From Pseudocercospora fijiensis CIRAD86 (lineage: Eukaryota > Ascomycota > Dothideomycetes > Mycosphaerellales > Mycosphaerellaceae), in assembly GCF_000340215.1 (NCBI RefSeq), contig NW_006921535.1, forward strand, positions 1,802,483 through 1,866,482: DNA of 64,000 bases. The letters are read 5' to 3'. The notes under the pieces were generated by a model that saw only the letters and a program-made list of their open reading frames with translations, did no database searches and had not been told where the DNA came from. Position numbers and translations under genes: made by a program. This document shows positions 5,815 through 53,969 of this stretch, one piece after another (the first letter of the stretch is position 1; each line of letters opens with the position of its first letter).

Positions 5815-6907
5815 ATGTTGCTTTTTGTAGGTCAGTTGCCGGGCCGACGCGTAGAAGCAAACGCGAACAAACGCGAGAACATGTTACGTAAGTCCGTCTC
5901 TCGCTATTCCTTTCCATTCTACATTCAACCCTCGAGCAAGACCAAGTCCAAGATAGCGACTCTCAGCGGTATAGCAGGAGACGATGGCGACGATCAACCA
6001 CCGCAGCGACCTACTATTCCTGGCTCTAAGATCGCGCTTCCTATGGACAAGGACGACGAGCAGCTTCTTAGTGGTACACAGAGGTGCAGCAACTGTGGCA
6101 AGACCAAGAATAAGACCGAGTTTTGGGATGGATCCCGCGATGATAACGGCAATCCGAAGACCAAGAAGACCTGCAACAAGCACTGGAAGAACCAGGGCTT
6201 AGCTGGTGGTGTTCGAGCTGGTGCTGGCAGACCGAATCGTATGCTGAACGACCCTCCACCTCCTCGCCCGCCTTGACATGGAATAAAGCGGCGGCATGCT
6301 CAGTACTTCGACGTCACTCCAGAAGGTACTCTACCAGGCGGAAAGCGACCGAGCAGGAAGCTCAGCAGCGCCTTCTTACCCAGAGCCATGCTCGGGAAGA
6401 TCGTGCTAAAAAGCGTCAGCGTACTCGAAATAGACTAGAAGAACCTGAAGGAGAGTTGGATACAGCGCCACCAGCAACAGGTACGGCAACCTCGAATGAT
6501 CCACCCACCATTGCTCCCGCTGCGCCACTAGACTTTGATTGCGACAAGTGCGAGCACCCACGTAAGAACGACTTACGCACTCAGGAAGGCACCGATCTCT
6601 GCCTGTATTGCACTACTAAGACTGTCGACTTGAATCCTCACGATGAGCGCAAGTGGTGCATCTCTGGCCGTCACGATTCATATCGTGTTCAGTTCCGAAG
6701 GGATGGTCAGCTTCTGATCAACGACGAGTATTCAGAACACCCCACGTCGCTGCGTTACTCATGCCCGCAACGCTGGTCCTGTACAACCTCAGCCTGTCCA
6801 AGATGAAGGACAAGAGTATTGAGTATGATTGCTCTGGCTGCAATCAAAGTCTCGTATATCTTCGCAGACCTCGAGAGAGGAACAGGCGTGAGTATACTCT
6901 ACAATAG
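5815..6907 (+). pseudogene. Broken Cys-rich locus, family unknown
   Basis: Three partly overlapping open stretches appear to be pieces of one gene. The first (from the ATG at 5815 to the TGA at 6274) contains CSNCGKTKNKTEFW with a second TC-x2-H half about 25 residues on, resembling a small zinc-binding module. After the TGA the same frame stays sensible (FDVTPEGTLPGGKRPS), then coding character shifts by one frame near 6,345 into a basic, Glu/Arg-rich segment. That segment is followed by CDKCEHPRK...CLYC at about 6,540-6,615, a possible second Cys4 module. A third frame ends with CSGCNQS near 6,840. Either unrecognised introns (GTAAGT at 5,888 is a candidate donor) or one stop and two frameshifts would explain this; I favour decay. 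I know no function. Confidence 0.4.
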
Positions 6908-15747: not shown

Positions 15748-15899
15748 AGGGGGAATAGACCCCGTAGTAGTTCGGTTTCCGAACCACCAAACGTATATAG
15801 TTTGGTTTCTTAGCGGCGAACTAGCTCCCTAGTTCCGGTTTGGTTTTTTCGAACTATATAGATTCCTAGTTTGAACTAGAGACTGTATTAGTTTTACTA

Positions 15900-16215
15900 T
15901 AAGGACACTCTTATTCGACTGCCGGCTACGATTACCGGCTATAATAGTAACTCTGTTACATTTACTACGCTCTTTTACCGTTGCTAGGGCGTGGTTGCCG
16001 TTACTAGGGCGTAGTTGCCGTTACTAGGGCGTAGTTTTGCTATAAGGACACTCTTATTCGACTGCCGGCTACGATTGCCGGCTATAATAGTTACTAGGTT
16101 GTATTTACTACGCTTTATTACCGTTGCTAGGGCGTGGTTGCTATTACTAGGGCGTAGTTGCCGTTGCTAGGGCGTAGTTGCTATTGCCGGGGCGTAGTTG
16201 CCGTAGTTGCGAAAG
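15900..16215 (+). repeat. hAT left subterminal repeats
   Basis: About 130 bp is duplicated (starting at GGACACTCTTATTCGACTGC), each copy with CCGGCTA motifs followed by several 20-bp units of the type CCGTTGCTAGGGCGTAGTTG. The same layout is at 44,560-44,870 in copy 2. Subterminal repeats of this kind are transposase-binding sites in well-studied hAT elements; that role here is inferred. Confidence 0.8.
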
Positions 16216-16349
16216 CTTACCTATATAACGTTACGTAGGCGGCAATAATTAGGGCTTCGCGATATTCTTATACTTTTAACTTCTTCCTCTATACCTACAC
16301 CGACAATAACTACTATACGCTACGCCCCCGCCCCTTTCCCTTATAATAG

Positions 16350-17760
16350 CAAGAGAGAAGCGCGCCGCGCGCTAAACAGAAGATAGAACTAAAGACCGCG
16401 AGTTTGTTTTGCCTAAGCGTCTAACTAAAAAGCGCAAGACTAAAGAGGAGTACTCTACGAAGAAGAATTCCGTACGAGACCGCGAGAGAAAGGACAAGAT
16501 AGATAAGGATAAAAGAGCTAAGGATAAGAGAAGAAAGGCGCGGAATAAGGCATTCTATCGATAGCTAGCGCCTATAGAAAAAAGTGAAGGTTGGAATAAG
16601 AAGACAACCTAAGAGAAGGCTAAGAGGAGGAAAGAATTGCGGCTAGTTTTCGAGCGTAAAGTTCTAGCAGCGTAAGTTAATCTAGCTAGCGGCCGTAGCT
16701 AGCAGCTATAGCCGGTAGCCGTAGCCGGCAGCTATAGCCGGTATATTTTTCTTTAACACGTTAACTAATAGCATTTAGACCTATAGCCGCTACCTCTATC
16801 GATACGACCGATAGTAACGGAGATATTTAGATAGCCGAGAACAACAATGCTAGAGTTTAGGATACCGCGATAGAGCTTAATACTACGAATAAAGGAACTA
16901 AAAAAAGCGAGGAGATACTATACGTCGATCTAGTAATAGGTATAGTCTTAGGGCCTAACGCTATAGACGATAAGCGCTAGGAGTAGATCGAGTATAGTTA
17001 AAGAGACGAGATACTAGTAAAGGGCTAAGGCATAAGTCCTATTAATCTAGAAAATTATAGTTAAAGCTACTACGAAAAGCTAGTAAGGATTAGAATCGAG
17101 ACTAGTCGTCTTTATATCCTCGATATAGAGTAGAAGTTTCTTTATTAGTATTAGAGCGAAGCCTTTACGTCTATAAAGGCAAAGTAGCTTGCGATTAATG
17201 CGATCGGGGCTAGGTATCTAGGGACGGCAGAAGTGTTACTATAGGAGGAAGGGGTATAGGTAATTATTCTATACTCGGCATATATAGCCGGCGTTCGTAG
17301 CCGGCAGATACTAACAGTTAAATAGAAAGCGTTTCTCGAAGGCAGAGTGCTACTGCTATATAAAATCTTTACTAAGGTAGAGAGGGCTTATATCCGGAAT
17401 CTAAGCTACTAGTAGGATAGGTTGGCGTTAGAATTCTCTAAATCTCTATATAAGCCTCCGAAGGATTACCTATTTTAGCGATACGGCTTTATCTCGACTA
17501 CTCCGTAGGTACCCGAAGAAGCTCGAGCGCTCTTTAAGGTCTTTACTAAGAAGCGGAAGGAGTTCGAGGATTAGGATTAGTTAATAGAGCTATTAGTTAG
17601 TCTTAGGTTTCGTAGTTAGACTCGGCCTAAGCATTTGCTTATCGAGTATCTTATACCGAAAGAGGATAGATTGAGACTAAAAACGAGCTTAGATTCGTTA
17701 GGTATAGTAGCTCGGTTCCGTTAGTAGGAGAGAGCCGCCGTATAGAAGGCAAAATTCAGG
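16350..17760 (+). pseudogene. hAT cargo ORF-A, unknown
   Basis: A long stretch with protein-like composition and stops only at probable Gln/Trp codons. It starts with a Lys/Arg-rich segment (about 16,400-16,660), is interrupted by a GCCGGC-bearing intron-like spacer (about 16,680-16,770), continues acidic, has a second such spacer at about 17,275-17,315, and ends with a region containing FISTTP and a Lys/Glu-rich helix (to about 17,760). I recognise no family. The same layout at 45,007-46,417 shows it belongs to the element. Precise ends and introns are not defined. Confidence 0.55.
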
Positions 17761-17880
17761 TAGTTAGTATAGCTAGGAAAGAAATTCTAGTAGTTAGGCT
17801 AGCTAGGGTAGCTAGGAAAAAAAATCTAGTAGTTAGGTAGCTAGGAAACAAAAAAAAAGGTAGCTAGCTATTTACTACCT
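17760..17880 (+). repeat. Short tandem repeat before the transposase
   Basis: Imperfect direct repeats built on TAGTTAGGTAGCTAGGAAA, four to five units, ending in an A-run and AGGTAGCTAGCTA. Also present in copy 2 near 46,415-46,540. Confidence 0.7.
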
Positions 17881-17988
17881 AGCTGTTCCTAACGATACGA
17901 TACTATAAAAGAAAGGGTGTTTCTCTATAGCTACTAGTATATATCTACTACTCCTAAGTCCTTACCTTACCGTACGAAACCTTAAAAC

Positions 17989-20900
17989 ATACCGACCGAC
18001 ATTGTATATATACTAGGCGCTATACTAGGAAGGGTAATAACGAGACGACAGTCGAAACAGTCTAGTATACGAGCGAGATTGCGACAACGTCGAGAGGAGG
18101 TCGCATACTTACCTTCGAGCCTATCGAGTCCTAGACTACGATTAGGGCTAGATTCATCCTCTCCGAATCCTAGTAGTAGGAATTCATTATAGGGTACTAC
18201 TACCTAGTCCTTACCTTTATAGAGTCTAAGTAGAAGGTTGTTCGGAGACATAAGAACATCGAGTATTAACCCGGAAATCTTCGAAAAGGCTAGCTAGGCG
18301 TATCTTTAGAAACCCGAGTATATAGAGCAGTTTAATTAATAGGTCTATAAGATATAGTTCCCTTTATACTTACGTTCGAAGGAGTGTAAACTCCGGAAGT
18401 ACTCGATACGATAGGGGAGTAAGGAGCGAACGGACATATTCTAGAAGTTCTTTATAGAGGGGGCATTGCACCGTTATACGACTTCTCGACTTAAAGGTTA
18501 ACTAGTAATTGTCTGCAACTTCTGCGGTTTAATCTTAAAATACCTGAAACTAGGGGATAGGAACTTATCGCCTACGAACTATCTCTATTCTAAACAGTAT
18601 CGGGAATCTTAAGGAGAGAGGAGAGTTAATATAGATATAGCGTTCTAGAAAGAGGTATGTCTTCTAAAATGCCGGCTATAGCTGCCGGCTATAGCTACCG
18701 GCTATAGATTCCGGCTACCTAAATTAACCGTAGAGATCTAGCTAATTATTATAGGCTACGCTTAAGGAAGCTCTAGGATTGAAGGCTACCGATTTCTCCC
18801 CCGAAGACTTTAAGTAACTAGCAAACGAAATGCTAGCTACAAACGGTCTTCCGGAAGACTTCTACGAAAGGGAGTCTATATAGAAGATATACCTATATCT
18901 TATAAACTACCCTCCCCTATTTCTCGGCGCGATAACCTAGCGTATTATATTCGAAAAGAACAAAGAGGCTACGTTAGACGATATTCGGGAGATCCTCCGT
19001 AATACTCGCCGAGTAGCTATTACTATCGATAGCTAGTTAAGCCGGACTATAAGAGCCTCCTTCCTCTCGATTATACTATACTTTATTAATTCGGATTAGA
19101 AACTCTAGGAACTTATAATCGGATTCCCTAAAATTCTAGGTTCCTATACTAGTAAGGATATAGCGAAGCTTGTCTATACGGTAATAGATAGGGTTAGCGT
19201 AACAACGAAACTAATCTCGATTACTACGGACAACGCTAGTAATAATCGAACATTGTATAAGGCGTTATATATACAATTCACTCGTATATATCTTTAAAAT
19301 CACTAATTGTATCGATAGGGTCGAGTACGTAGAGGAGATTATAAGGTCTATAATCTAGCTTAATCTTCCGAATATTAAGCTCGCTACGATTCCGGATACG
19401 TACGACAATACGTACGATAATAACGATAAAGAGGAGCCTATTAATAGCCCTAGCCCTATTAAATCGGAGCCGACGTCGTTACTAGTTATATCCCTATAGA
19501 AGTTTCCCTACCTCGCTTATATAGTTTAAATCGCGATCCGAGCCCTCTTTAAGACGCTTAAAATTGCACTATTAAACGACGACTAATAGAAGATCCTAGA
19601 TAAGGATAAAGCAAAGTCGAAAGTCGAGAAACTTATTATAGTAATAAGACGGGATAAGGCAGAGAGCCTCGCTCTCGTTTTATATAAGGTATAACTTTTG
19701 TCCGTAGCCGGCACCTATAGCCGGCAACCTAGTATAGTTCTAACTCTTTTTCTCTAGCTTCGTCGTCTAGCAATATATACGAACTCGAGCTTATAGAGAT
19801 ATAACCGATTCGAGGCTATTTAAAAGAACCTAATCGAGCGCCCTAAAACCGATGCCTAGAATATCGTATAGAATAAGCGATAGCAAAAGCGGCCTCCTTA
19901 GCGCCTACTCCGTTTTACCTAAGACGTTAAGACCCGGTTCGATTCGACTTTCTATATAGTTACGAGGGGATATACTTTACGTACCGCTCTCGAGATCTAT
20001 TAGAGTTCCGAGGGTATTAAGTAGCTCGGCCTTACCGCCGCCGAATAGCGCTAAGTAGAGTATCTCGTCGATATTAGTAAGCATTACGCGAAGGTTACTA
20101 CTACGATTAGAAGAACCCGAGGACCGACGATCTACCTTATCTTTACGTACTATAACTAGCTCTTTAACGAGCTCGAGGAAACCGTAGCTAAGCTAGCTAA
20201 GAAGAGCGTTCCCTAGAAAGTAGCTATAACGAAAGCTATAGACACCTCCTATACTAAGTTGTATAAATATTATAGTACTACCTTTAACTCGTTCGGGGAT
20301 ATCTATAGCGTTACGTGCTTGCTTAACCCGGTAGAAAAGGATATATACTAGTAGAGGCCGGAATAGAAAGCGGACGAGGTATAGCCGAAGTATTACTAGA
20401 CTATTCTAGAAAAGATATTCTACGAGCGTCGGAAAGAAACTAGTCTAAATATAGCTCCTATAAAGAAAAAGAAGGTTTAGAAGGCTCCGATATTATACCT
20501 GTTTCGTAGGTAGGAAGTAGAGGCAGAAGAGGAAGCAACTACTAAAGTAAATAAAGAAGAGTTCGATCTCTATCGGCGCGCGAGTAAGTATAAACCCGTA
20601 GGCTCGGAAAGAGGGCTAATAATCTCTAGATCTTACCGGTCTTCTAGACGAATTCGGAGACGATATTCTCGCTATATAGTAGCGGTTAGAGCCTAAGTTT
20701 CTAACGATAGCGTCGGTCGCTCGGGACGTCCTCGCTATCCCGAGCGTAGGTATAGGCTATAAGAGGTCTTTTAGTATCGCTCGTTACTAGGGCCGCTTTA
20801 ATCGAACATACTCGCCTACTACCTTCGAATCTATTATAGTATTCCGATACTATCTCCTCTACTAGAATCGCTAAGGCAGGTTACTAAAGATTATACTAAA

Positions 20901-21105
20901 GGAGTTAATCGAGGAATTAGAAAACCTTAAGATCGAAGAAACCTAGGAGCGCGAAGAGAATACGAAATTTAGTCTAAGCGAAACCCTAATTAGCGATAAC
21001 GAAGAGGAGGAGGGCGGAGGTAGAAGGCGATACCGGGTCGAGAAGCGGAAACGTATATAGGCTTAGAGCAGCTTTAAGGAGACGAAGCGTTTACGTATAA
21101 GGTAA
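17989..21105 (+). pseudogene. hAT transposase with BED finger
   Basis: The cut-and-paste enzyme of the element. The initiator is ATA here but still ATG in copy 2 (46,647). A BED-type zinc finger lies at about 18,510-18,605 (CNFC, then a TNYLYSK block where His has become Tyr). The catalytic half contains ITTDNASNN (about 19,216-19,245), a hallmark hAT block; KTRFDSTFY (about 19,930) corresponds to the TRWNST region. The C-terminal dimerisation domain reads ARDVLAIPSVGIG and then FSIARY (about 20,720-20,790). Two introns are clear: 18,655-18,754 and 19,689-19,757. Both have GT/AG ends, and both carry GCCGGC motifs. In-frame stops at Gln/Trp codons show it is dead. Confidence 0.9.
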
Positions 21106-21273
21106 TATAGCCGGCGTATATAGCCGGTATATATCCGAAATGTGTTTCGAATTCCTAGGACCTAAACAGACTAGTTGCTATAGCAACCGACCCCGCTTAC
21201 CTACGGACTATTTCTAATTCTCTATTCGCTCTTCCTCTCCTTCTTCCCTTTCCCTATATTCTTAAAGACAAAC

Positions 21274-22640
21274 ATACCTTAAGGATTCGGCTCTTCGGGC
21301 CTTCCTAAGCCGGCTACCTCCCCTTCCTTAAGCTACTATCCTTTATTCGAATCTAACGATAACCTAATAAGGCGATTTAATAGAAGACTATTTGTTCTAG
21401 AAGGTAAGAAGCATTAATATCTCCTTACGATTATATACTTATTAATTTTCTAGGTCCTACCGATATACCTTCGTCGCCTAAACGCGTAGATAAATATCTT
21501 TAGAGGCTAAAGGGTAAGGGTAAAGCAAGCTAAGTATAGGGAGACCGTAGCGAGAACGAGATATCGGAAGAGCAAGGCTCTCCGTAGTATATACGAAGGA
21601 AGGGGGTTCCTCGGAAAACAGTACTAAAAAACAAGAAGGCTATAGGTAGATAGGAGAAGGCTAAAAAGAGTAGGCGGACGAAGACTATCGCGAAGAAAAG
21701 TTATCTTTCTATTAAAAGAAAGGGAATAAGGTAGGACTCGACGATAAAGAAGCGGCGCTTTAAACTAGGTACTATTGCCCTTCGCTAGATCCGGCTTTTC
21801 TAAAACAAAAGAGGGACCGAGCTTTTAATCCCTAAGACTCCCTTCTAGCGACTCGTCCGAGAAATTATATTAGATTTTCGGTCTAATATACGATTTACGG
21901 CTAAGGCGATTAGTGCTCTTTAGGAAGCTACGGAGGCATTTCTCGTAACCGAGCTTAAGCTTTCAAACCTCCTTACTATCTATACGAAGCGGGTTACTTT
22001 TTAAAATAAAGATATATAGCTTCTAGCTAAAATTCGGCGTCGGTTTATAGCAGATTAGTTGGAAATTGTATTTAGTCGTTAGATTAACCTAGGAGGAAGC
22101 CCATTTTCGCATCCTTTTGCCGGCTATAGGTGCCGGCTACATTTCTGATTTTATCTCCGCGCCGTCCCTAAATCTAAGGTACGAAGTAGAAACCTAGCGC
22201 TCTATATTTACCCGGCTATTACAGAGACGAGCTATATTCAGATTAGTTTCTTCGTATATCGCGACCTAGCGGGTAGTAAGCGAAAGGGCGATAGAACGTT
22301 TATAATACGTCTCTATTTAGACCTAAAATATAAAGGTCCTAAGGAGCCCTAGTATCCTAACTATAAGGAGATTCTTTAGCATTAGCACTTTAATCCTCTA
22401 TACTGCGAGGCAGATAGTAAGCCTACGAGAGAGAAACTTTAACGAGAAATTCTCTATAATACGTAGCGCTATTGTATAGCTATAGATACGTACTAAGTCC
22501 GGTAACTCGAAGAAGAATTAAGATAGCGTATTAGCGACCGAGGAAGAGATCGATAGTATACTAGTAGAGTCGAGGTCTTATAAGCGAAGTATAAGATAAT
22601 ATAGGCTCTTAGTCGTATAGAGTAACGTACTATATAAATA
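21274..22640 (+). pseudogene. Divergent histone H3-like gene carried by hAT (CenH3-like features)
   Basis: Encodes an H3-type histone fold at 21,768-22,046 (93 codons, the length of the H3 core). It aligns block by block: GTIALR, RLF, ELLIPKTPF, RLVREI, ISAL with stop for Gln then EATEAFLV, LLTIYTKRVT, NKDI, and AKIRRRF. Stops fall exactly where H3 has Gln. Copy 2 keeps one of them as CAA (LQNKDI). The N-tail is about 148 residues, Lys/Arg-rich, far longer than in H3. An intron at 21,404-21,453 (GTAAGA...TTCTAG) splices in frame. A second, GCCGGC-bearing intron at about 22,068-22,178 would add an in-frame C-terminal extension to about 22,640. Long tail, LLT in helix 2 and RVTF/RVTL recall centromeric H3, but loop 1 has the length of ordinary H3, so variant class is open. 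The ATG is lost here and kept in copy 2. Confidence 0.85.
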
Positions 22641-23350
22641 ACTAGGCGTACTACTCTTATTTACTTACGACCTATATCCTAGGATACTCTTCTCGTACTT
22701 TTTATACTCTTTTCTAATACCTTACCTGTAAGCGCTCCGCGATAACCGAGTGAATATAAGCTATAGGGTTTCCGCTTAGTACCTTAGCCTCCGAGATAGG
22801 GCAGAGTTGAATTTAGAGCGATAGCCGGCACTCGTAGCCGGCATATAGAGACGGTAGTAGGCCTTTTCCTACTAAATGACTAGCTTGTTTAGTATAGCCT
22901 ACCTAATATTTCTTATATTTACTAGCAATAGGCCTAGGTTACTTATAAGATTACTATAGCTAGTAAAGGCATTACTAAAGAATATCTATACTATAGTAAG
23001 ATACTATTATCACGCCGGCTATTTATTAAAAGGAGGCTTTCGCCTATTACTATGCCGGCTATATATACCGGCTATATTTCAAAGTCTCCCGTACCTGCCT
23101 TTTTTAGCCGTGCCTGCCTTTTTTAGCCGTGCCTACCTTCTTTCCTTGCTCTAACGTTACTATAATGTAGGCTTGCGCGAAGCTTACTCTATTGCCTAGC
23201 GATACCGCGACATTACCGCTATATTTAACCTTCGCATCGATACCTATACCTCTACGCTCTATATCTACTACCTCCGTAATACCCTCGCTCTGCGCGCGCC
23301 TTCGTACACCTTCGCAACGTACTTTTTTCCTTAATTCGACGACTTTTATA
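22641..23350 (+). other. hAT spacer between the two H3 genes
   Basis: No clear gene. It holds two GCCGGC clusters (about 22,820-22,850 and 23,010-23,075), a short direct repeat GCCTGCCTTTTTTAGCCGT at about 23,090-23,130, and a pyrimidine-rich stretch that may be promoter and 5' UTR of the following H3 gene. Confidence 0.5.
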
Positions 23351-24239
23351 ATAGCGAGTCTACTTAACTAAGTTACGACGCCTCGTAAGAAAGGACCTAG
23401 TACTTCTGCGGGTCGCAATAAGACCGGAAATAGTAGAACGAGTATAGTATATTAACGTAAGAGGGCTACTGCTACTACCGCTAGCTCCGGTACTAGAAAG
23501 GGCGTCGCGAGTAAGGCTCCGCGTAAGACAACGGCGGGCAAGGCTCTACGTAAGACGACAACTAGCGCTTCTACTACTAGTAGCAATCGTACGAAGCGTC
23601 GATAGCGCCTAGGAAGTAAGTCCTATTTATAGCCGGCAGCGTAGCCGGCAGCGTAGCCGGCAGCGTAGCCGGCATTCTTACTGTCTTTTTACTAATCCTT
23701 CTTTAGCCGTAGCCCTCCGTAAGATTCGGCAGTATTAGAAGAGTTCTTAGCTCCTAATCCGCAAAACTCCTTTCTAACGACTTGTTCGCGAAATTGCCTA
23801 GGATTATAGAACGGACCTTCGCTTCTAAGCCTCCGCGATAGACGCCCTTTAAGAGGCTATAGAAGCCTACCTAGTTCGTATCTTCGAATGTATGTTTCTC
23901 TTCTACCTCTTTTCGGACTATACTAATACTATTTTAGCGGTTAACCTTATAGCTATCTACGCGAAGCGTATAACGATTATAGATAAGGATTTCAAAGCAC
24001 TCGATTAGATTCTAAAAGGCTAGAATGTCTATATTCGAGACGGTGCTAGGTAGGATAGATATTCTAGTAGAAAGGATGTTCGTAGTATTATCTATAAGCT
24101 TTTCTATATGCGAAATGAGCCGCTGTTATACGGCGCTATATACCGCGCTCTAAATACTCTCTAAGCATATATATATATAGTATAGTATACTTTATTAGCC
24201 GTACGGAATAGAAGTCTCCTAAAATCCCGTTAGTACTAA
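23351..24239 (+). pseudogene. Near-canonical histone H3 gene carried by hAT
   Basis: Three exons, 23,351-23,615, 23,707-23,889 and 23,938-24,239. Both introns are GT...ACTAAT...AG, and intron 1 contains four GCCGGC motifs. Splicing intron 1 recreates GTVALRKIRQY, and splicing intron 2 joins VRIFES to VNLIAIYAKRITI, both exactly where H3 has them. Between are LLIRKTPF, RLVREIA and DYRTDLRF, with stop codons at the Gln positions of H3. The N-tail is about 88 residues, twice the usual, and keeps SKAPRKTTAGKALRK, reminiscent of the K9-K27 region. A C-terminal extension of roughly 80 residues follows the core and differs between copies by a 2-bp AT-repeat slip, so the end is uncertain. The presumed start codon reads ATA in both copies. 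If expressed it would be a nucleosomal H3 variant; that is inference. Confidence 0.9.
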
Positions 24240-24349
24240 GGAGTAAAAAGGCCGGCTACGCTGCCGGCTACGCTGCCGGCTACGCTACTAGCTACGCTGC
24301 TAGGTTTTTCAAAGAACTAAAAGAAGATAGACATTCCGGTTGATTTGTA

Positions 24350-24889
24350 TTAGTTTAGATTTTTATAAAAAGAAAACAGGGAAAAATAAGGAAGGTTGAA
24401 GAGCCTAATAGTTATAGTTATAGGCACTATCCCTGTTTTCTAGAGTATATTATATACCTGCCTTCGCAACTCTACCTAATACTCCCTCTAAATATCCTTA
24501 TACTCTACCTACTAAAAATTCAACTAGGTACCTAGACCTATAGCTGCCTCTATATCTTTTACTATCTTCTATAGGTTAAAGGCCTCTTCTATAGCAGCCT
24601 CTACCTCCTTATACAATACGAAGTTACTACCTACCCTACCCTTTATATCTCCTAAATAACTAAGAGTTCTAAGGAACGAACTAGTATTCGGCCTTAGTAT
24701 AGCGAGTAACTAGTAGAACGTTCTACAGAGCTACCTTATAGCTCTTTTATATACTATACCGATACCGAGGGAGGAGCTATCCTAGTACTTAATATTGTCG
24801 AATAGTTCGGTAGGAAAGTGTATAAACTTCTTAAGGAGGAGGACTTCTAGGGAAATCGATGAGTTCTACCTAGATCTAGATAAAGACAT
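24350..24889 (-). pseudogene. hAT cargo ORF-C, unknown 179-aa protein
   Basis: Minus-strand frame of 180 codons from the ATG at 24,889. All in-frame stops before the last are at plausible Gln/Trp codons, and the length is identical in copy 2 (52,992-53,531). It starts MSLSRSR, has a segment with KKFIHFPTELFDNIKY, and the middle is likely helical (EVEAAIEEAFNL, IVKDIEAAIGLG). No family recognised. It converges with the H3 gene and is the only gene on the minus strand of the element. Confidence 0.55.
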
Positions 24890-25099
24890 TCTACTAAGCA
24901 GTTAGGGAATTGAACTGTAAACGAAAGGATGAAATTTATACCTAAGGAGTACAGTTTCCGAACTAAACTATAATGCCTTATATGTATATATATATGCTTT
25001 TGATTGGTTAGTGCCCTTAGCTAATTGTCTATAGATTTAAGGTTATATAAGTACCTTTATATAACTATATAGCCTAAGTAGGATTCGAAAATTCTATAA

Positions 25100-25321
25100 G
25101 TACTAAGGACTAAAAATGCCGGCTACGCTGCCGGCTATACTGCTAAGTCTTATAAAGGGCTTGCTTGAAGCTACGTATACATTCGTACACTTCTTAAAAA
25201 CCGATAAATTATATAGTTCGAACTAGCTACTTATATAGTTGCTTAGCAAACCAACCCAAACCAAACTAGAGTTTCGGCTTAGCAAACTAAACCAAACCAA
25301 CCCGAACCACTGCGGGGTCTA
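25100..25321 (+). repeat. hAT right subterminal region
   Basis: Two TGCCGGCTA motifs (25,110-25,140) and repeats of TTAGCAAACYAAACCAAACC, which are inverse to GGTTTGGTTT motifs of the left end, finish in CGGGGTCTA. The same is found at 53,740-53,961. Confidence 0.8.
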
Positions 25322-25761
25322 AGGGGGAAAGAAGGGTAGGGCAGCAGACAAGGTAGTTAGAGGGTAATAACTATAACACTAGTGCACCCTAGAGGAAGGA
25401 AAACAAGGAAACGAGGAAGATCAACACTTATAAATAGGATAGGAGGGAGGTTTTTACTAACTAAGTTGGTTTCCTATCTAAAACAATATATAGAAACAGA
25501 CCTGCATAGGCCGAAAGGCACTATAACAGGCAAATGAAATATCTATCTATCTATATAAATCCTTTCTAAATTCTTTCTATTCTGTTTTCTTTATATTCTA
25601 TTCGTATTAGCTACTATAATTATTTTTTATTATCTAAATAGTTAATAGTCTCTAAGTCTAGTTAGAGAAAGTCTTAGTAATTAACTAATATAATTTTTAA
25701 ATATAGCTAATCTACTAGCTAATTAGTTATTTTAGTATTTAGCTAAACTATTTCTAAAATT

Positions 25762-44412: not shown

Positions 44413-45006
44413 TAGACCCCGTAGTGGTTCGGTTTCCGAACTACTAAACGTATATAGTTTGGTTTCTTAGCGGCGAACTAGCTCCCTAGTTCCGGTTTAG
44501 TTTTTTCGAACTATATAGATTCCTAGTTTAAACTAGAGACTATATTGGTTTTACTATAAGGACACTCTTATTCGACTGCCGGCTACGATTGCCGGCTATA
44601 ATAGTAACTCTGTTACATTTACTACGCTCTTTTGCCGTTGCTAGGGCGTAGTTGCCGTTGCTAGGGCGTAGTTGCCGTTACTAGGGCGTAGTTTTGCTAC
44701 AAGGACACTCTTATTCGACTACCGGCTACGATTGCCGGCTATAATAGTTACTAGGTTGTATTTACTACGCTTTATTACCGTTGCTAGGGCGTAGTTGCCG
44801 TTGCTAGGGCGTAGTTGCCGTTGCTAGGGCGTAGTTACTATTGCCGGGGCGTAGTTGCCGTAGTTGCGAAAGCTTACCTATATAACGTTACGTAGGCGGC
44901 AATAATTAGGGCTTCGCGATATTCTTACACTTTTAACTTCTTCCTCTATACCTATACCGATAATAACTACTATACGCTACGCCCCCGCCCCTTTCCCTTA
45001 TAATAG

Positions 45007-46417
45007 CAAGAGAGAAGCGCGCCGCGCGCTAAACAGAAGATAGAACTAAAGACCGCGAGTTTGTTTTGCCTAAGCGTCTAACTAAAAAGCGTAAGACTAA
45101 AGAGGAGTACTCTACGAAGAAGAATTCCGTACGAGACCGCGAGAGAAAGGATAAGATAGATAAGGATAAAAGAGCTAAGGATAAGAGAAGAAAGGCGCGG
45201 AATAAGGCATTCTATCGATAGCTAGCGCCTATAGAAAAAAGTAAAGGTTAGAATAAGAAGACAACCTAAGAGAAGGCTAAGAGGAGGAAAGAATTGCGGC
45301 TAGTTTTCGAGCGTAAAGTTCTAGTAGCGTAAGTTAATCTAGCTAGCGGCCGTAGCTAGCAGCTATAGCCGGCAGCCGTAGCCGGCAGCTGTAGCCGGTA
45401 TATTTTTCTTTAACACGTTAACTAATAGTATTCAGACCTGTAGCCGCTACCTCTATCGATACGACCGATAGTAACGGAGATGTTTAGATAGCCGAGAACA
45501 ACAATACTAGAGTTTAGGATACCGCGACAGAGCTTAATACTACGAATAAAGGAACTAAAAAAAGCGAGGAGATACTATACGTCGATCTAGTAACAGGTAT
45601 AGTCTTAGGGCCTAACGCTATAGACGATAAGCGCTAGGAGTAGATCGAGTATAGTTAAAGAGACGAGATACTAGTAAAGGGCTAAGGTATAAGTCCTATT
45701 AATCTAGAAAATTATAGTTAAAGCTACTACGAAAAGCTAGTAAGGATTAGAATCGAGACTAGTCGTCTTTATATCCTTAATATAGAGTAGAAGTTTCTTT
45801 ATTAGTATTAGAGCGAAGCCTTTACGTCTATAAAGGCAAAGTAGCTTGCGATTAATGCGATCGGGGCTAGGTATCTAGGGACGGTAGAAGTGTTACTATA
45901 GGAGGAAGGGGTATAGGTAATTATTCTATACTCGGCATATATAGCCGGCGTTCGTAGCCGGTAGATACTAACAGTTAAATAGAAAGCGTTTCTCGAAGGC
46001 AGAGTGCTACTACTATATAAAATCTTTACTAAGGCAGAGAGGGCTTATATCCGGAATCTAAGCTGCTAGTAGGATAGGTTAGCGTTAGAATTCTCTAAAT
46101 CTCTATATAAGCCTCCGAAGGATTACCTATTTTAGCGATACGGCTTTATCTCGACTACTCCGTAGGCACCCGAAGAAGCTCGAGCGCTCTTTAAGGTCTT
46201 TACTAAGAAGCGGAAGGAGTTCGAGGATTAGGATTAGTTAATAGAGCTGTTAGTTAGTCTTAGGTTTCGTAGTTAGACTCGGCCTAAGCATTTGCTTATC
46301 GAGTATCTTATACCGAAAGAGGATAGATTGAGACTAAAAACGAGCTTAGATTCGTTAGGTATAGTAGCTCGGTTCCGTTAGTAGGAGAGAGCCGCCGTAT
46401 AGAAGGCAAAATTCAGG
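45007..46417 (+). pseudogene. hAT copy 2 ORF-A, unknown
   Basis: Counterpart of 16,350-17,760, with the same basic start, two GCCGGC-bearing spacers (about 45,340-45,410 and 45,935-45,970) and FISTTP region. No family recognised. Confidence 0.55.
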
Positions 46418-46646
46418 TAGTTAGAGTAGCTAGGAAAGAAATTCTAGTAGTTAGGCTAGCTAGGGTGGCTAGGAAAAAAAATCTAGTAGTTAGGTAGCTA
46501 GGAAACAAAAAAAAAAGGTAGCTAGCTATTTACTACCTAGCTATTCCTAACGATACGATGCTATAAAAGAAAGGGTGTTTCTCTATAGCTACTAGTATAT
46601 ATCTACTACTCCTAAGTCCTTACCTTACCGTACGAAACCTTAAAAC

Positions 46647-49600
46647 ATGCCGACCGACATTGTATATATACTAGGCGCTATACTAGGAAGGGTAACAACG
46701 AAACGATAGTCGAAACAGTCTAGTATACGAGCGAGATTGCGACAACGTCGAGAGGAGGTCGTATACTTACCTTCGAGCCTATCGAGTCCTAGACTACGAT
46801 TAGGGCTAGATTTATCCTCTCCGAATCCTAGTAGTAGGAATTTATTATAGGGTACTACTACCTAGTCCTTACCTTTACGGAGTCTAAGTAGAAGGTTGTT
46901 CGGAGATATAAGAATATCGAGTATTAACCCGGAAATCTTCGAAAAGGCTAGCTAGGCGTATCTTTAGAAACCCGAGTATATAGAGTAGTTCAATTAATAG
47001 GTCTATAAGATATAGTTCCCTTTATACTTACGTTCGAAGGAGTATAAACTCCGGAAGTACTCGATACGATAGGGGAGTAAGGAGCGAACGGATATATTCT
47101 AGAAGTTCTTTATAGAGGGGGCATTGTACCGTTATACGACTTCTCGACTTAAAGGTTAACTAGTAATTGTCTATAACTTCTACGGTTCAATCTTAAAATA
47201 CCCGAAACTAGGGGATAGGAACTTATCGCCTACGAACTATCTCTATTCTAAACGGTATCGGGAATCTTAAGGAGAGAGGAGAGTTAATATAGATATAGCG
47301 TTCTAGAAAGAGGTATATCTTCTAAAATGCCGGCTATAGCTGCCGGCTATAGCTGCCGGCTACAGATTCCGGCTACCTAAATCAACCGTAGAGATCTAGC
47401 TAATTATTATAGGCTGCGCTTAAGGAAGCTCTAGGATTAAAGGCTACCGATTTCTCCCCCGAAGACTTTAAGCAACTAGCAAACGAAATACTAGCTATAA
47501 ACGGTCTTCCGGAAGACTTCTACGAAAGGGAGTCTATATAGAAGATATACCTATATCTTATAAACTACCCTCCCCTATTTCTCGGCGCGACAACCTAGCG
47601 TATTATATTCGAAAAGAACAAAGAGGCTATGTTAGACGACATTCGGGAGATCCTCCGTAATACTCGCCGAGTAGCTATTACTATCGATAGCTAGTTAAGC
47701 CGGACTATAAGAGCCTCCTTCCTCTCGATTATGCTATACTTTATTAATTCGGATTAGAAACTCTAGGAACTTATAATCGGATTCCCTAAAATTCTAGGTT
47801 CCTATACTAGTAAGGATATAGCGAAGCTTGTCTATACGGTAATAGATAGGGTTAGCGTAATAACGAAACTAATCTCGATTACTACGGATAACGCTAGTAA
47901 TAATCGAATATTGTATAAGGCGTTGTATGTACAATTCACTCGCATATGTCTTTAAAATTACTAATTGTATCGATAGGGTCGAGTGCGTAGAGGAGATTAC
48001 AAGGTCTATAATCTAGCTTAATCTTCCGAATGTTAAGCTCGCTACGATTCCGGATACGCACGACAATACGCACGATAATAACGATAAAGAGGAGCCTATT
48101 AATAGCCCTAGCCCTATTAAATCGGAGCCGACGTCGTTGCTAGTTATATCCCTATAGAAGTTTCCCTACCTCGCTTATATAGTTTAAATCGCGATCCGAG
48201 CCCTCTTTAAGACGCTTAAAATTGCACTATTAAACGACGACTAATAGAAGATCCTAGATAAGGATAAAGCAAAGTCGAAAGTCGAGAAACTTATTATAGT
48301 AATAAGACGGGATAAGGTAGAGAGCCTCGCTCTCGTTTTGTATAAGGTATAACTTTTGTCCGTAGCCGGTACCTATAGCCGGCAACCTAGTATAGTTCTA
48401 ACTCTTTTTCTCTAGCTTCGTCGTCTAGCAATATATACGAACTCGAGCTTATAGAGATATAACCGATTCGAGGCTATTTAAAAGAACCTAATCGAGCGCC
48501 CTAAAACCGATGCCTAGAATATCGTATAGAATAAGCGATAGTAAAAGCGGCCTCCTTAGCGCCTACTCCGTTTTACCTAAGACGTTAAGACCCGGTTCGA
48601 TTCGACTTTCTATATAGTTACGAGGGGATGTACTTTACGTACCGCTCTCGAGATCTATTAGAGTTCCGAGGGTATTAAGTAGCTCGGCCTTACCGCCGCT
48701 AAATAGCGCTAAGCAGAGTATCTCGTCGATATTAGTAAGCATTACGCGAAGGTTACTGCTACGATTAAAAGAACCCGAGGACCGACGATCTACCTTGTCT
48801 TTACGTACTATAACTAGCTCTTTAACGAGCTCGAGGAAACCGTAGCTAAGCTAGCTAAGAAGAGCGTTCCCTAGAAAGTAGCTATAACGAAAGCTATAGA
48901 CACCTCCTATACTAAGTTGCATAAATATTATAGTACTACCTTTAACTCGTTCGGGGATATCTATAGCGTTACGTACTTGCTTAACCCGGTAGAAAAGGAT
49001 ATATACTAGTAGAGGCCGGAATAGAAGGCGGACGAGGTATAGCCGAAGTATTACTAGACTATTCTAGAAAAGATATTCTACGAGCGTTAGAAAGAAACTA
49101 GTCTAAATACAGCTCCTATAAAGAAAAAGAAGGTTTAGAAGGCTCCGACATTATACCTGTTTCGTAGGTAGGAAGTAGAGGCAGAAGAGGAAGTAACTAC
49201 TAAAGTAAATAAAGAAGAGTTCGATCTCTATTAGCGCGCGAGTAAGTATAAACCCGTAGGCTCGGAAAGAGGGCTAATAATCTCTAGATCTTACCGGTCT
49301 TCTAGACGAATTCGGAGACGATATTCTCGCTATATAGCAGCGGTTAGAGCCTAAGTTTCTAACGATAGCGTCGGTCGCTCGGGACGTCCTCGCTATCCCG
49401 AGCGCAGGTATAGGCTATAAGAGGTCTTTTAGTATCGCTCGTTACTAGGGCCGCTTTAATCGAATATACTCGCCTACTACCTTCGAATCTATTATAGTAT
49501 TCCGATACTATCTCCTCTACTAGAATCGCTAAGGTAGGTTACTAAAGATTATACTAAAGGAGTTGATCGAGGAATTAGAAAACCTTAAGATCGAAGAAAC

Positions 49601-49763
49601 CTAAGAGCGCGAAGAGAATACGAAATTTAGTCTAAGCGAAACCCTAATTAGCGATAACGAAGAGGAGAAGGGCGGAAGTAGAAGGCGATACCGGGTCGAG
49701 AAGCAGAAACGTATATAGGCTTAGAGCAGCTTTAAGGAGACGAAGCGTTTACGTATAAGGTAA
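46647..49763 (+). pseudogene. hAT transposase, copy 2
   Basis: Counterpart of 17,989-21,105 and retains the ATG (MPTDIVYILGAILGR). The BED finger has lost more ligands here (both Cys now Tyr near 47,170-47,190), while ITTDNASNN (about 47,875) and ARDVLAIPSAGIG-type dimerisation block (about 49,380-49,420) remain. The introns sit in the same places, with the GCCGGC clusters. It is inactive through Gln/Trp stops. Confidence 0.9.
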
Positions 49764-49931
49764 TATAGCCGGCGTATATAGCCGGTATATATCCGAAATG
49801 TGTTTCGAATTCCTAGGACCTAAACAGACTAGTTGCTATAGCAACCGACCCCGCTTACCTACGGACTATTTCTAATTCTCTATTCGCTCTTCCTCTCCTT
49901 CTTCCCTTTCCCTATATTCTTAAAGACAAAT

Positions 49932-51298
49932 ATGCCTTAAGGATTCGGCTCTTCGGGCCTTCCTAAGCCGGCTACCTCCCCTTCCTTAAGCTACTATCCT
50001 TTATTCGAATCTAACGATAACCTAATAAGGCGGTTTAATAGAAGACTATTTGTTCTAGAAGGTAAGAAGTATTAATGTCTCCTTACGATTATATGCTTAT
50101 TAATTTCTAGGTCCTACCGATATACCCTCGTCGCCTAAACGCGCAGATAAATATCTTTAGAGGCTAAAGGGCAAGGGTAAAGCAAGCTAAGTATAGGGAG
50201 ACCGTAGCGAGAACGAGATATCGGAAGAGTAAGGCTCTCCGTAGTATATACGAAGGAAGGGGGTTCCTCGGAAAATAGTACCGAAAAACAAGAAGGCTAT
50301 AGGTAGATAGGAGAAGGCTAAAAAGAGTAGGCGGACAAAGACTATCGCGAAGAAAAGTTATCTTTCTATTAAAAGAAAGGGAACAAAGTAGGACTCGACG
50401 ATAAAGAAGCGGCGCTTTAAACTAGGTACTATTGCCCTTCGCTAGATCCGGCTTTTCTAAAACAAAAGAGGGACCGAGCTTTTAATCCCTAAGACTCCCT
50501 TCTAGCGACTCGTCCGAGAAATTATATTAGATTTTCGGTCTAGTATACGATTTACGGCTAAGGCGATTAGTGCTCTTTAGGAAGCTACGGAGGCATTTCT
50601 CGTAACCGAGCTTAAGCTTTTAAACCTCGTTACTATCTATACGAAGCGGGTTACTCTTCAAAATAAAGATATATAGCTTCTAGCTAAAATTCGGCGTCGG
50701 TTTATAGCGGATTAGTTAGAAATTGTATTTAGTCGTTAGATTAACCTAGGAGGAGGCCTATTTTCGCATCGTTTTGCCGGCTATAGGTGCCGGCTACATT
50801 TCTGATTTTATCTCCGCGCCGTCCCTAAATCTAAGGTACGAAGTAGAAACCTAGCGCTCTATATTTACCCGGCTATTATAGAGACGAGCTATATTCAGAT
50901 TAGTTTCTTCGTATATCGCGACCTAGCGGGTAGTAAGCGAAAGGGCGATAGAACGTTTATAATACGTCTCTATTTAGACCTAAAATACAAAGGTCCTAAG
51001 GAGCCCTAGTATCCTAACTATAAGGAGATTCTTTAGTATTAGCACTTTGATCCTCTATACTACGAGGTAGATAGCAAGCCTATAAGAGAGAAACTTTAAC
51101 GAGAAATTCTCTATAATGCGTAGCGCTATTGCATAGCTACAGATACGCACTAAGTCCGGTAACTCGAAGAAGAATTAAGATAGCGTATTAGCGACCGAGG
51201 AGGAGATCGATAGTATACTAGTAGAGTCGAGGTCTTATAAGCGAAGTACAAGATAATATAGGCTCTTAGTCGTATAGAGTAACGTACTATATAAATAA
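49932..51298 (+). pseudogene. Divergent histone H3-like gene, hAT copy 2
   Basis: Counterpart of 21,274-22,640. It keeps the initiator ATG at 49,932 and, in the last helix, CAA at the Gln before NKDI that is a stop in copy 1. This confirms that the stops are RIP damage at Gln codons. Histone fold at about 50,426-50,704. Same long basic tail, same first intron, same GCCGGC pair after the fold and in-frame C-terminal extension. Confidence 0.85.
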
Positions 51299-51994
51299 CT
51301 AGGCGTGCTACTCTTATTCACTTACGACCTATATCCTAGGATACTCTTCTCGTACTTTTTATACTCTTTTCTAATACCTTACCTATAAGCGCTCCGCGAC
51401 AACCGAGTAAATATAAGCTATAGGGTTTCCGCTCGGTACCTTAGCCTCCGAGATAGGGCGGAGTTGAATTTAGAGCGATAGTCGGCACCCGTAGCCGGTA
51501 TATAGAGACGGTAGTAGGCCTTTTTCTGCTAAATAACTAGCTTGTTTAGTATAGCCTACCTGATATTTCTTATATTTACTAGCAATAGGCCTAGGTTACT
51601 TATAAGATTACTATAGCTAGTAAAGGCATTACTAAAGAATATCTATACTATAGTAGGATACTATTATTACGCCGGCTATTTATTAAAAGGAGGCTTTCGC
51701 CTATTACTATGCCGGCTATATATACCGGCTATATTTCAAAGTCTGCCGTACCTGCCTTTTTTAGCCGTGCCTGCCTTCTTTCCTTGCTCTAACGTTACTA
51801 TAATATAGGCTTACGCGAAGCTTACTCTATTGCCTAGCGACACCGCGATACTACCTCTCTCGCTATATTCAACCTTCGTATCGATACCTATACCTCTACG
51901 CTCTATATCTACTACCTCCGTAATACCCTCGCTCCGCGCGCGCCTTCGTACACCTTCGTAACGCACTTTTTTCCTTAATTCGACGACTTTTATA

Positions 51995-52881
51995 ATAGCG
52001 AATCTACTTAACTAAGTTACGACGCCTCGCAAGAAGGGACCTACTACTTCTACGGGTCGTAATAAGATCGGAAATAAAGGAACGAGTATAGTACATTAAC
52101 GTAAGATAGCTACTACTACTGCCGCTAGCTCCGGTGCTAGAAAGGGCGTCGCGAGTAAGGCTCCGCGCAAGACAACGGCGGGCAAGGCTCTACGTAAGAC
52201 GACAACTAGCGCTTCTGCTACTAGTAGCAATCGTGCGAAGCGTCGATAGCGCCTAGGAAGTAAGTCCTATTTATAGCCGGCAGCGTAGCCGGCAGCGTAG
52301 CCGGTAGCGTAGCCGGCATTCTTACTGTCTTTTTACTAATCCTTCTTTAGCCGTAGCCCTCCGTAAGATTCGGCAGTATTAGAAGAGTTCTAAGCTCCTA
52401 ATCCGCAAAACTCCTTTCTAACGACTTATTCGCGAAATTGCCTAGGATTATAGAATAGACCTTCGCTTCTAAGCCTCCGCGATAGGCGCCCTTTAAGAGG
52501 CTATAGAAGCCTACCTAGTTTGTATCTTCGAATGTATGTTTCTCTTCTACCTCTTTTCGGACTATACTAATACTATTTTAGCGGTCAACCTTATAGCTAT
52601 CTACGCGAAGCGTATAACGATTATAGACAAGGATTTCAAAGCACTCGATTAGATCCTAAAAGGCTAGAATGTCTACATTCGAGATAGTGCTAGATAGGAT
52701 AGATATACTAGTAGGAAGGATGTTCGTAGTATCGTCTACAAGCTTTTCTATATACGAAATAAGCCGCTATTATACGGCGCTATATACCGCGCTCTAAATA
52801 CTCTCTAAGTATATATATATAGTATAGTATGCTTTATTAGCCGTACGGAATAGAAGTCTCCCAAAATCCCGTTAGTACTAA
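51995..52881 (+). pseudogene. Near-canonical histone H3 gene, hAT copy 2
   Basis: Counterpart of 23,351-24,239. Exons 51,995-52,259, 52,351-52,533 and 52,582 to about 52,881; intron 1 again with four GCCGGC-type motifs. The core keeps ALRKIRQY, LLIRKTPF, RLVREIA and VNLIAIYAKRITI. A 2-bp shorter AT repeat near 52,810 changes the frame of the last part of the extension relative to copy 1, so the true C-terminus is unknown. Confidence 0.9.
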
Positions 52882-52991
52882 GGAGTAAAAAGGCCGGCTA
52901 CGCTGCCGGCTACGCTGCCGGCTACGCTGCTAGCTACGCTGCTAGGTTTTTTAAAGAACTAAAAGAAGATAGACATTCCGGTTGATTTGTA

Positions 52992-53531
52992 TTAGTTTAG
53001 ATTTTTATAAAAAGAAAATAGGGAAAAATAAGGAAGGTTGAAGAGCCTAATAGTTATAGTTATAGGCACTATCCCTGTTTTCTAGAGCATATTATATACC
53101 TGCCTTCGCAACTCTACCTAATACTCCCTCTAAATATCCTTATACTCTACCTACTAGAAATTCAACTAGGTACCTAGACCTATAGCTGCCTCTATATCTT
53201 TTACTATCTTCTATAGGTTGAAGGCCTCTTCTATAGCAGCCTCTACCTCCTTATATAATATAAAGTTACTACCTGCCCTACCCTTTATATCTCCTAAATA
53301 ACTAAGAGTTCTAAGGAACGAACTAGCATTCGGCCTTAGTATAGCGAGTAACTAGTAGAACGTTCTACAGAGCTGCCTTATAGCTCTTTTATATACTATA
53401 CCGATACCGAGGGAGGAGCTATCCTAGTACTTAATATTATCGAATAGTTCGGTAGGAAAGTGTATAAACTTCTTAAGGAGGAGGACTTCTAGGGAAATCG
53501 ATAAGTTCTACCTAGATCTAGATAAAGACAT
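52992..53531 (-). pseudogene. hAT copy 2 ORF-C, unknown
   Basis: Counterpart of 24,350-24,889 with identical length (180 codons) and ATG at 53,531. Conservation of length and frame despite heavy C/T change supports a real gene before RIP. Confidence 0.55.
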
Positions 53532-53969
53532 TCTGCTAAGCAGTTAGGGAATTGAACCGTAAACGAAAGGATGAAATTCATACCTAAGGAGTGTAGTTTC
53601 CGAACTAAACTATAATGCCTTGTATATATATATATACTTTTAATTGGTTAGTACCCTTAGCTGATTGTCTATAGATTTGAGGTTATATAAGTACCTTTAT
53701 ACAACTACGTAGCCTAAGTAGGATTCGAAAATTCTATAAGTACTAAGGACTAAAAATGCCGGCTACGCTGCCGGCTATACTGCTAAGTCTTATAAAGGGC
53801 TTGCTTAAAGCTACATATACATTCGTACACTTCTTAAAAACCGATAAATTATATAGTTCGAACTAGCTACTTATATAGTTGCTTAGCAAACCAACCTAAA
53901 CCAAACTAGAGTTTCGGCTTAGCAAACTAAACTAAACTAACCCGAACTACTGCGGGGTCTAACCTTAAA

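What the first reader, a model, noticed from the sequence alone, without database searches (positions are those of the whole stretch)
15756..25321. A hAT transposon that carries two histone H3 genes as cargo
Seen: within one pair of hAT ends (8-bp duplication AGGGGGAA, TAGACCCCG termini) lie a hAT transposase and two separate genes whose translated cores align along the whole length of the H3 fold. The same five-gene layout recurs at 44,413-53,961 with another 8-bp duplication (ACCTTAAA), so the histones move with the element. Known: H3 is normally encoded by a few conserved host genes, and I do not know of a hAT family carrying H3. Inference: element-encoded H3 variants could mark the element's chromatin, ease integration, or counter silencing.
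Basis: partly seen in the sequence, partly recalled or inferred. Interest (0 to 1): 0.93.

Follow-up and report, generated by a model that had tools for sequence, protein, structure and literature searches.

The report
Jumping gene carrying two histone genes
A jumping gene that filled a fungal genome, probably that of a banana pathogen, with hundreds of now-dead copies carries two different histone H3 genes; this is already in print, but the genes look like old parts of the element, one with its own introns, rather than a recently picked-up copy of the host gene.

Summary
Window 15756-25321 and 44413-53961 are complete ~9.55 kb hAT-type elements with perfect 8-bp duplications and two histone-H3 genes each. 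It is also already published, very probably in this same species: Pseudocercospora fijiensis, 784 H3-like sequences in 471 hAT elements, all copies RIP-inactivated (PMC6710886), after an earlier case in Pyrenophora tritici-repentis (PMC3538342).

The published reading is capture of one housekeeping H3 transcript. My data fit that poorly. (1) The second H3 gene has two intron-like stretches; the reported 16-residue insertion matches a 48-bp spliceosomal-type intron. (2) The two H3s differ from each other and from host H3 by transversions, which RIP does not make. (3) Both occur in two subfamilies ~81% identical; 20 of 20 elements chosen by their termini carry H3-a. (4) A RIP-blind test shows third-codon excess in the pooled H3 cores (p 0.008), as in the transposase, though not in the tails nor in H3-a alone. 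So the H3s look like long-standing element genes.

New leads: GCCGGC arrays (27 per element, none in tested exons) and 373-bp elements without H3. Function is untested; an anti-silencing role is a guess. Mending sequences is referred.

The parts
15748..15755 (.). 8-bp target-site duplication AGGGGGAA (left); right copy 25322-25329
15756..25321 (+). Element 1, complete RIP-mutated hAT-type transposon, 9566 bp
15756..15775 (+). Left terminal inverted repeat TAGACCCCGTAGTAGTTCGG
25302..25321 (-). Right terminal inverted repeat
16402..17755 (+). Gene 1, unknown function, tentative exons 16402-16671, 16779-17284, 17330-17755; no Pfam match for the two pieces scanned (first exon not scanned)
   Evidence: RY differences by codon position sum to 27,17,33 over the three exons
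17990..21070 (+). hAT-type transposase, broken by stops; pieces 17990-18654, 18760-19290, 19296-19700, 19750-20630, 20640-21070; Dimer_Tnp_hAT on the last piece at E 0.0038 (below curated cut-off), the other pieces without a convincing Pfam match
21453..22055 (+). H3-a: long basic N-terminal part (21453-21743) and complete H3 core (21744-22043), no intron in the core; likely 49-bp intron just upstream 21404-21452
23360..23615 (+). H3-b tail exon, matches the host H3 tail from K9 to G44 (KAPRK block, duplicated in many copies)
23616..23706 (+). H3-b intron 1 (GTAAGT...CTAAT...CTTTAG), holds tandem TAGCCGGC motifs; one codon from, and same phase as, host H3 intron 2
23707..23889 (+). H3-b core exon 2
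23890..23937 (+). H3-b intron 2, 48 bp (GTATGT...CTAAT...TTTTAG); by length and place the '16-aa insertion' of PMC6710886
23938..24035 (+). H3-b core exon 3
   Evidence: no Pfam match alone
15921..25135 (.). 27 GCCGGC motifs, often in tandem, 0 of 27 in the 3386 bp of tested transposase and H3 exons
44413..53961 (+). Element 2, 9549 bp, same layout, TSD ACCTTAAA at 44405-44412 and 53962-53969; H3-a exon 50110-50712; H3-b region about 52004-52680 by offset

Best explanation
This is a RIP-killed family of hAT-type transposons in which two different H3 genes are long-standing parts of the element, not recent passengers. Shown: two H3 genes per element; divergence by transversions; two intron-like stretches in H3-b; presence in two old subfamilies; codon-position constraint in the H3 cores like the transposase's; H3-less elements with the same ends and duplications. 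Inferred: while alive, the element expressed two H3 variants that acted in trans, most likely by entering nucleosomes and making chromatin of the element (or of target sites) less silenced or easier for the transposase. The GCCGGC arrays in its non-coding parts are the likeliest address for an element-encoded DNA-binding protein. My probabilities: element-owned, constrained H3 genes about 0.62; a chromatin or anti-silencing role about 0.3.
For: H3 identity. Both genes in both subfamilies: 16 subfamily-1 and 5 subfamily-2 copies aligned, about 81% identical between subfamilies. RIP-blind RY differences between subfamilies by codon position: H3 cores pooled 13, 9, 23 of 192, 191, 192 (Fisher p 0.008); transposase pieces 31, 17, 45 of 745, 744, 746 (p 0.0016). 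H3-b tail-exon length is a multiple of three in 21 of 21 copies although it varies between 255 and 285. H3-b introns: intron 2 is 48 bp with AG and CTAAT in 21 of 21 copies; GT in 9 and AT in 12, as RIP at TpG would give; intron 1 has GTAAGT in 21 of 21 and CTAAT in 20 of 21. Transversions by codon position against host H3: H3-b exon 2 7,4,13 of 60 each, exon 3 9,4,9 of 27 each, H3-a 19,12,22 of 78 each; H3-a against H3-b 6,8,11 of 46 each. 20 of 20 TIR-chosen elements carry H3-a. GCCGGC: 27 against 0.7 expected, none in tested exons, p 7.5e-6.
Against: The H3-b tail exon (9,10,4) and H3-a tail (7,5,4) show no third-position excess, and the H3-a core alone is not significant (p 0.10); H3-b alone is p 0.028. 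The comparison rests on 5 subfamily-2 copies found through their H3-a, so subfamily-2 elements without H3 could not have been seen. H3-b core exons differ more between subfamilies than their own introns (32 of 277 against 1 of 138), which plain constraint on the protein does not predict. No intact copy was seen and no expression data were examined. Protein searches found no transposase relative, so kinship with the Pyrenophora element is untested.
Confidence: 0.62

Rival explanations
1. Transduplication as published: one housekeeping H3 transcript was captured by a hAT element, copied, and is only a passenger that RIP destroyed.
For: PMC6710886: copies spanning exon junctions without introns; H3-a core here is also intronless. 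No third-codon excess in the tails.
Against: H3-b has two intron-like stretches, one lying one codon from host H3 intron 2 in the same phase. H3-a and H3-b differ from each other and from host H3 by many transversions. Codon constraint between subfamilies in the cores.
Confidence: 0.25
2. Capture of a genomic, intron-bearing H3 (or two captures), neutral afterwards; the constraint signal is weak or due to something else.
For: Intron 1 of H3-b nearly coincides with host intron 2. H3 tails are not constrained.
Against: The constraint test compares two element subfamilies with each other, so the differences counted arose after the capture unless each subfamily captured its own H3.
Confidence: 0.2
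3. Element-encoded centromere-type H3 (CenH3).
For: Long divergent N-terminal part; the H3-b tail also scores against the host CenH3 tail (0, 0 and 1 of 2000 shuffles reach it).
Against: H3-a core aligns to host H3 with no loop-1 gap and 50 of 88 identities (subfamily 2: 48 of 88); host CenH3 needs a 4-residue gap there and gives 46 (45) of 88 (gap also in the alignment).
Confidence: 0.04
4. RIP hostage: carrying H3 makes RIP hit the essential host H3, so that lineages that RIP the element die.
For: The host gene is intact while 148 of the 150 scored H3 hits (all but host H3 and CenH3) have stops; PMC6710886 argues the host gene shows some RIP.
Against: PMC6710886 gives 51-55% nucleotide identity of ten near-full-length copies to host H3, below the ~80% it gives for RIP recognition; the element was in any case RIPped massively.
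Confidence: 0.04

Closest known systems
H3-carrying hAT family of Pseudocercospora fijiensis (PMC6710886; Background to Methods read, parts 1-5 of 7)
   Same: Hundreds of H3-like copies, 9.5-9.9 kb full-length elements, 8-bp duplications, 20-bp TIR, copies RIPped, one or two H3 per element, original H3 on scaffold 6 (contig C6 here); its '3 Mb, 4.1%' implies a genome of about 73 Mb (73.9 here). Almost certainly the same family and species.
   Different: The paper reads a single intronless transcript capture, calls the 16 residues an insertion, and could not identify the dimerisation domain. I find introns in H3-b, two subfamilies, a weak Dimer_Tnp_hAT match, GCCGGC arrays and 373-bp elements; I saw none of these in the parts read, and the paper says no other domains or structural repeats were identified.
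H3L-carrying hAT element of Pyrenophora tritici-repentis (PMC3538342; passages read)
   Same: hAT transposase plus an ORF of unknown function plus a divergent H3-like gene between TIRs; 26 copies; ESTs for the H3-like gene reported.
   Different: 5.6 kb (and a 2.3-kb form), one H3, mostly intact. PMC6710886 reports no nucleotide similarity; protein-level kinship could not be tested here.
VANDAL transposons with VANC anti-silencing proteins, Arabidopsis (PMC5735166 abstract and one section; PMC10398659 abstract)
   Same: Short motif in dense arrays in non-coding parts of the element, number varying between copies.
   Different: A different kind of transposon (MULE, recalled); motif YAGTATTAY not GCCGGC; no histone in what I read; here no protein is shown to bind the motif.

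Membership tests
hAT superfamily DNA transposon | 8-bp target-site duplication | tested here: met
   Elements 1 and 2, and 5 of 6 fetched copies with both ends, perfect 8 bp; L014 imperfect
hAT superfamily DNA transposon | Short terminal inverted repeats | tested here: met
hAT superfamily DNA transposon | hAT transposase with C-terminal dimerisation domain | tested here: inconclusive
   Raw piece: Dimer_Tnp_hAT E 0.0038, 17.4 bits against cut-off 21.4; DUF659 E 0.14
Histone H3 family | Complete H3 histone-fold core | tested here: met
   H3-a profile 9-122/122, 82.4 bits; H3-b exon 2 38-96/122, 65 bits, cut-off 26.4. H3-b exon 3 alone no Pfam match; 11 of 26 identities to host H3
CenH3 | Longer loop 1 than canonical H3 | tested here: not met
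   H3-a core needs no gap in loop 1 against host H3; loop-1 criterion recalled
Transduplicated transcript (published reading) | Introns absent from the captured gene | tested here: not met
   H3-b has two intron-like stretches; H3-a core has none, so met for H3-a alone
VANC-type sequence-specific anti-silencing | Dense motif arrays confined to non-coding parts | tested here: met
   27 GCCGGC, 0 in 3386 bp of tested exons
VANC-type sequence-specific anti-silencing | Element protein that binds the motif and removes silencing marks | not testable with these tools
   no binding or chromatin data

The most novel reading that the evidence does not exclude
The element ran its own chromatin: two element-owned H3 variants, one with a tandemly enlarged K14-K27-like tail block, were steered to element copies through an element protein that reads GCCGGC arrays in introns and spacers. 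It is a histone-based anti-silencing system in a fungal hAT lineage, with a possible ancient relative in Pyrenophora.
Probability: 0.13. Interest if true: 0.88.

Novelty: already known. Interest (0 to 1): 0.5.

Why it matters
The H3-carrying hAT family itself is published. What would matter is the change of reading: if the H3s are element genes kept by selection, mobile DNA in fungi has made histones part of its own toolkit, which would let one test whether transposons use histone variants against silencing. It would also correct a published inference: if the 16-residue insertion is an intron, capture of a transcript does not explain the second H3.

Tried and rejected
Chance: rejected, see termini, duplications and profile E-values. 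CenH3: disfavoured by loop-1 length. A K4/K9-like motif in the H3-a tail: looked plausible by eye, not significant (635 and 53 of 2000 shuffles reach the best H3-tail score for the two copies tried), dropped. The H3-b tail match to the host H3 tail holds (2, 0 and 0 of 2000 shuffles), though the same three tails also score against the CenH3 tail (0, 0 and 1 of 2000). A close outside relative of H3-a: the top database hit, 254 aa from Synchytrium microbalum, is a tandem double H3 and not a relative of H3-a in particular; of the 120 best listed of 813 I read 12 sequences, and the other 11 are canonical-type H3, divergent H3 or CenH3-like proteins. Transposase relatives: none found (7994 and 7992 candidates scored), perhaps because RIP and X at stops destroy the exact words the search needs. 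Gene at 22180-22560: no codon constraint (19,23,18 of 89,89,86), not called a gene. A 5.2-kb stretch between two termini on C1 (L043) has no transposase or H3 match but its flanks do not match (TCCTAAGC, TAAGGTAC), so I do not count it as one moved element. Papers: in 9 text searches the titles and abstract starts listed showed only PMC3538342 and PMC6710886 as studies of H3 in hAT elements; PMC8616336, a review that holds the terms, was not opened; PMC4994206 was searched for terms and only cites the 2013 paper. The library lacks most subscription journals and the papers' supplements were not available.
Full report
What is there. The window lies at G000:C4:1802483-1866482 of a 73.9-Mb, 30-contig genome. 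From about 10 kb on it is RIP-type AT-rich DNA: in element 1 CpA and TpG are at 0.24 of expectation and TpA at 1.64. Two complete elements of 9566 and 9549 bp stand at 15756-25321 and 44413-53961 with perfect 8-bp duplications AGGGGGAA and ACCTTAAA. The 20-base terminus, with up to one mismatch, occurs 418 times forward and 408 reverse in the genome, with no match to the reversed pattern.

The histones. Raw pieces with X at stops place H3-a (21453-22055) and H3-b (exons 23360-23615, 23707-23889, 23938-24035) in PF00125 at 4.1e-23 and, for H3-b exon 2, 1e-17; the short exon 3 and the tail exon alone give no Pfam match. The best PDB matches are ordinary H3. Raw H3-a core is 50 of 88 identical to host H3 (X skipped), raw H3-b exon 2 41 of 54 and exon 3 11 of 26. 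Part of that difference is RIP. Transversions, which RIP does not make, still differ at first and second codon positions: 31 of 156 for H3-a (from TELLI on), 11 of 120 for H3-b exon 2 and 13 of 54 for exon 3, and 14 of 92 between H3-a and H3-b over 46 codons. So the two H3s had left the host sequence and each other by changes other than RIP. The H3-b tail aligns to the host H3 tail from K9 to G44 with the KAPRK block (2 of 2000 shuffles reach the score for element 1, 0 of 2000 for two other copies; the host CenH3 tail is also matched), and that block is duplicated in frame in many copies.

Already in print. PMC6710886 (parts 1-5 of 7, Background to Methods) describes in Pseudocercospora fijiensis 784 H3-like sequences in 471 hAT elements, 133 of 9.5-9.9 kb, 8-bp duplications, all copies RIP-inactivated, original H3 on scaffold 6. 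Here the intact host H3 is on contig C6. I infer the same species and family; no record name was shown to me. PMC3538342 (passages) describes an earlier case in Pyrenophora tritici-repentis with a divergent H3-like gene that has ESTs.

Where I differ from the paper. It reports a 16-aa insertion in the second copy and an intronless transcript capture. In H3-b a 48-bp stretch, 23890-23937, reads GTATGT...CTAAT...TTTTAG. Across 21 aligned copies the length is 48 in 21, AG and CTAAT are in 21, and the donor is GT in 9 and AT in 12, the change expected of RIP at TpG. A second stretch, 23616-23706, has GTAAGT in 21 of 21, CTAAT in 20 of 21 and the CTTTAG acceptor at the aligned place in 20 of 21 (L016 differs there), varies between 79 and 116 bp, and read through carries in-frame stops, several from its own TAGCCGGC repeats. 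It splits the codon after the one that host H3 intron 2 splits, in the same phase. No RNA was examined, so splicing itself is inferred. H3-a's core has no intron, so a transcript origin remains possible for H3-a alone.

Two subfamilies. Of 20 regions fetched, one (L009) is the host CenH3 locus; 19 are element copies, 14 of subfamily 1 (96-97% to element 1) and 5 of subfamily 2 (80-82%); with the window's two elements 21 were aligned. Both H3 genes are in all 21, some with frameshifts or an insertion. These copies were picked through H3 hits, so presence of H3-a in them is no test. Picked by termini instead: among the first 100 listed termini of 826, 12 pairs of 9.3-10.1 kb on C1 and 8 on C2 give 20 elements; 14 contain an H3-a hit and the other 6, fetched in part, all match H3-a (one only over its second half, at the edge of the fetched stretch) and H3-b exon 2.

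RIP-blind constraint. Coding each base as purine or pyrimidine hides C-to-T and G-to-A changes. Between subfamily majorities, differences at codon positions 1, 2, 3 are 13, 9, 23 in the pooled H3 cores (192, 191, 192 sites; Fisher p 0.008) and 31, 17, 45 in four transposase pieces (745, 744, 746; p 0.0016); a fifth, N-terminal piece gives 7, 5, 18 of 221, 222, 221. H3-b alone p 0.028, H3-a alone p 0.10. Against the reading: H3-b tail exon 9, 10, 4 and H3-a tail 7, 5, 4 show no such excess. Puzzling: H3-b introns differ at 1 of 138 sites against 32 of 277 in H3-b core exons (p 2.5e-5), while four other putative introns of the element differ at 27 of 290.

A cis motif and H3-less elements. GCCGGC occurs 27 times in element 1 (0.7 expected by base composition; 3 in the 44,885 bp of the window outside both elements; the next commonest of the 64 G/C hexamers occurs 5 times) and never in the 3386 bp of transposase and H3 exons tested (p 7.5e-6). 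The 8 complete copies have 14 to 28. Tandem pairs occur 599/591 times in the genome (control 0/0), and 84 of the first 100 listed lie within 10 kb on the element side of a listed terminus, a zone covering 3.7% of that contig as far as listed; the other 16 do not. Four 373-bp elements with the same termini, three with perfect and one with 7-of-8 duplications, carry one or two GCCGGC and no H3; two fetched copies have such an insertion in their H3 genes. So the ends and little else seem to suffice for movement, presumably in trans, and H3 is not needed in cis.

How it most likely worked. Shown: structure, two H3 genes, intron-like stretches, two subfamilies, core constraint. Inferred: expression while alive and a trans effect on chromatin. 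The array layout recalls VANDAL/VANC anti-silencing (PMC5735166, abstract and one section; PMC10398659, abstract), which is a likeness and not membership. I put 0.62 on element-owned H3 genes and about 0.3 on a chromatin or anti-silencing role.

Noticed in passing
L029-L032 (C1 and C2); insertions in L011 and L013: 373-bp MITE-like elements with the same termini, 8-bp duplications (3 perfect, 1 with 7 of 8) and GCCGGC motifs; two fetched larger copies have one inside an H3 gene.
   Followed up: partly
L043 (C1:260990-266230): 5.2-kb stretch between two termini keeping part of gene 1, without transposase or H3 matches; its flanking 8-mers do not match, so it may not be one moved unit.
   Followed up: partly
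window 23616-23706 and 23890-23937: H3-b introns are more conserved between subfamilies in transversions than the exons around them; unexplained (gene conversion, introner-like gain or a DNA-level function).
   Followed up: partly
window 23500-23610 and copies L016-L028, L013: In-frame tandem duplication of a KAPRKTTAG-type block in the H3-b tail, number varying between copies.
   Followed up: partly
L009, about 5845-6367: Intact host CenH3 gene with one intron, used as comparator.
   Followed up: yes
window 29516-31076 and 62137-63715: Another repeat pair, two stretches 87% and 91% identical, outside the hAT elements.
   Followed up: no
P0002: Synchytrium microbalum protein of 254 aa that is a tandem double H3.
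   Followed up: no
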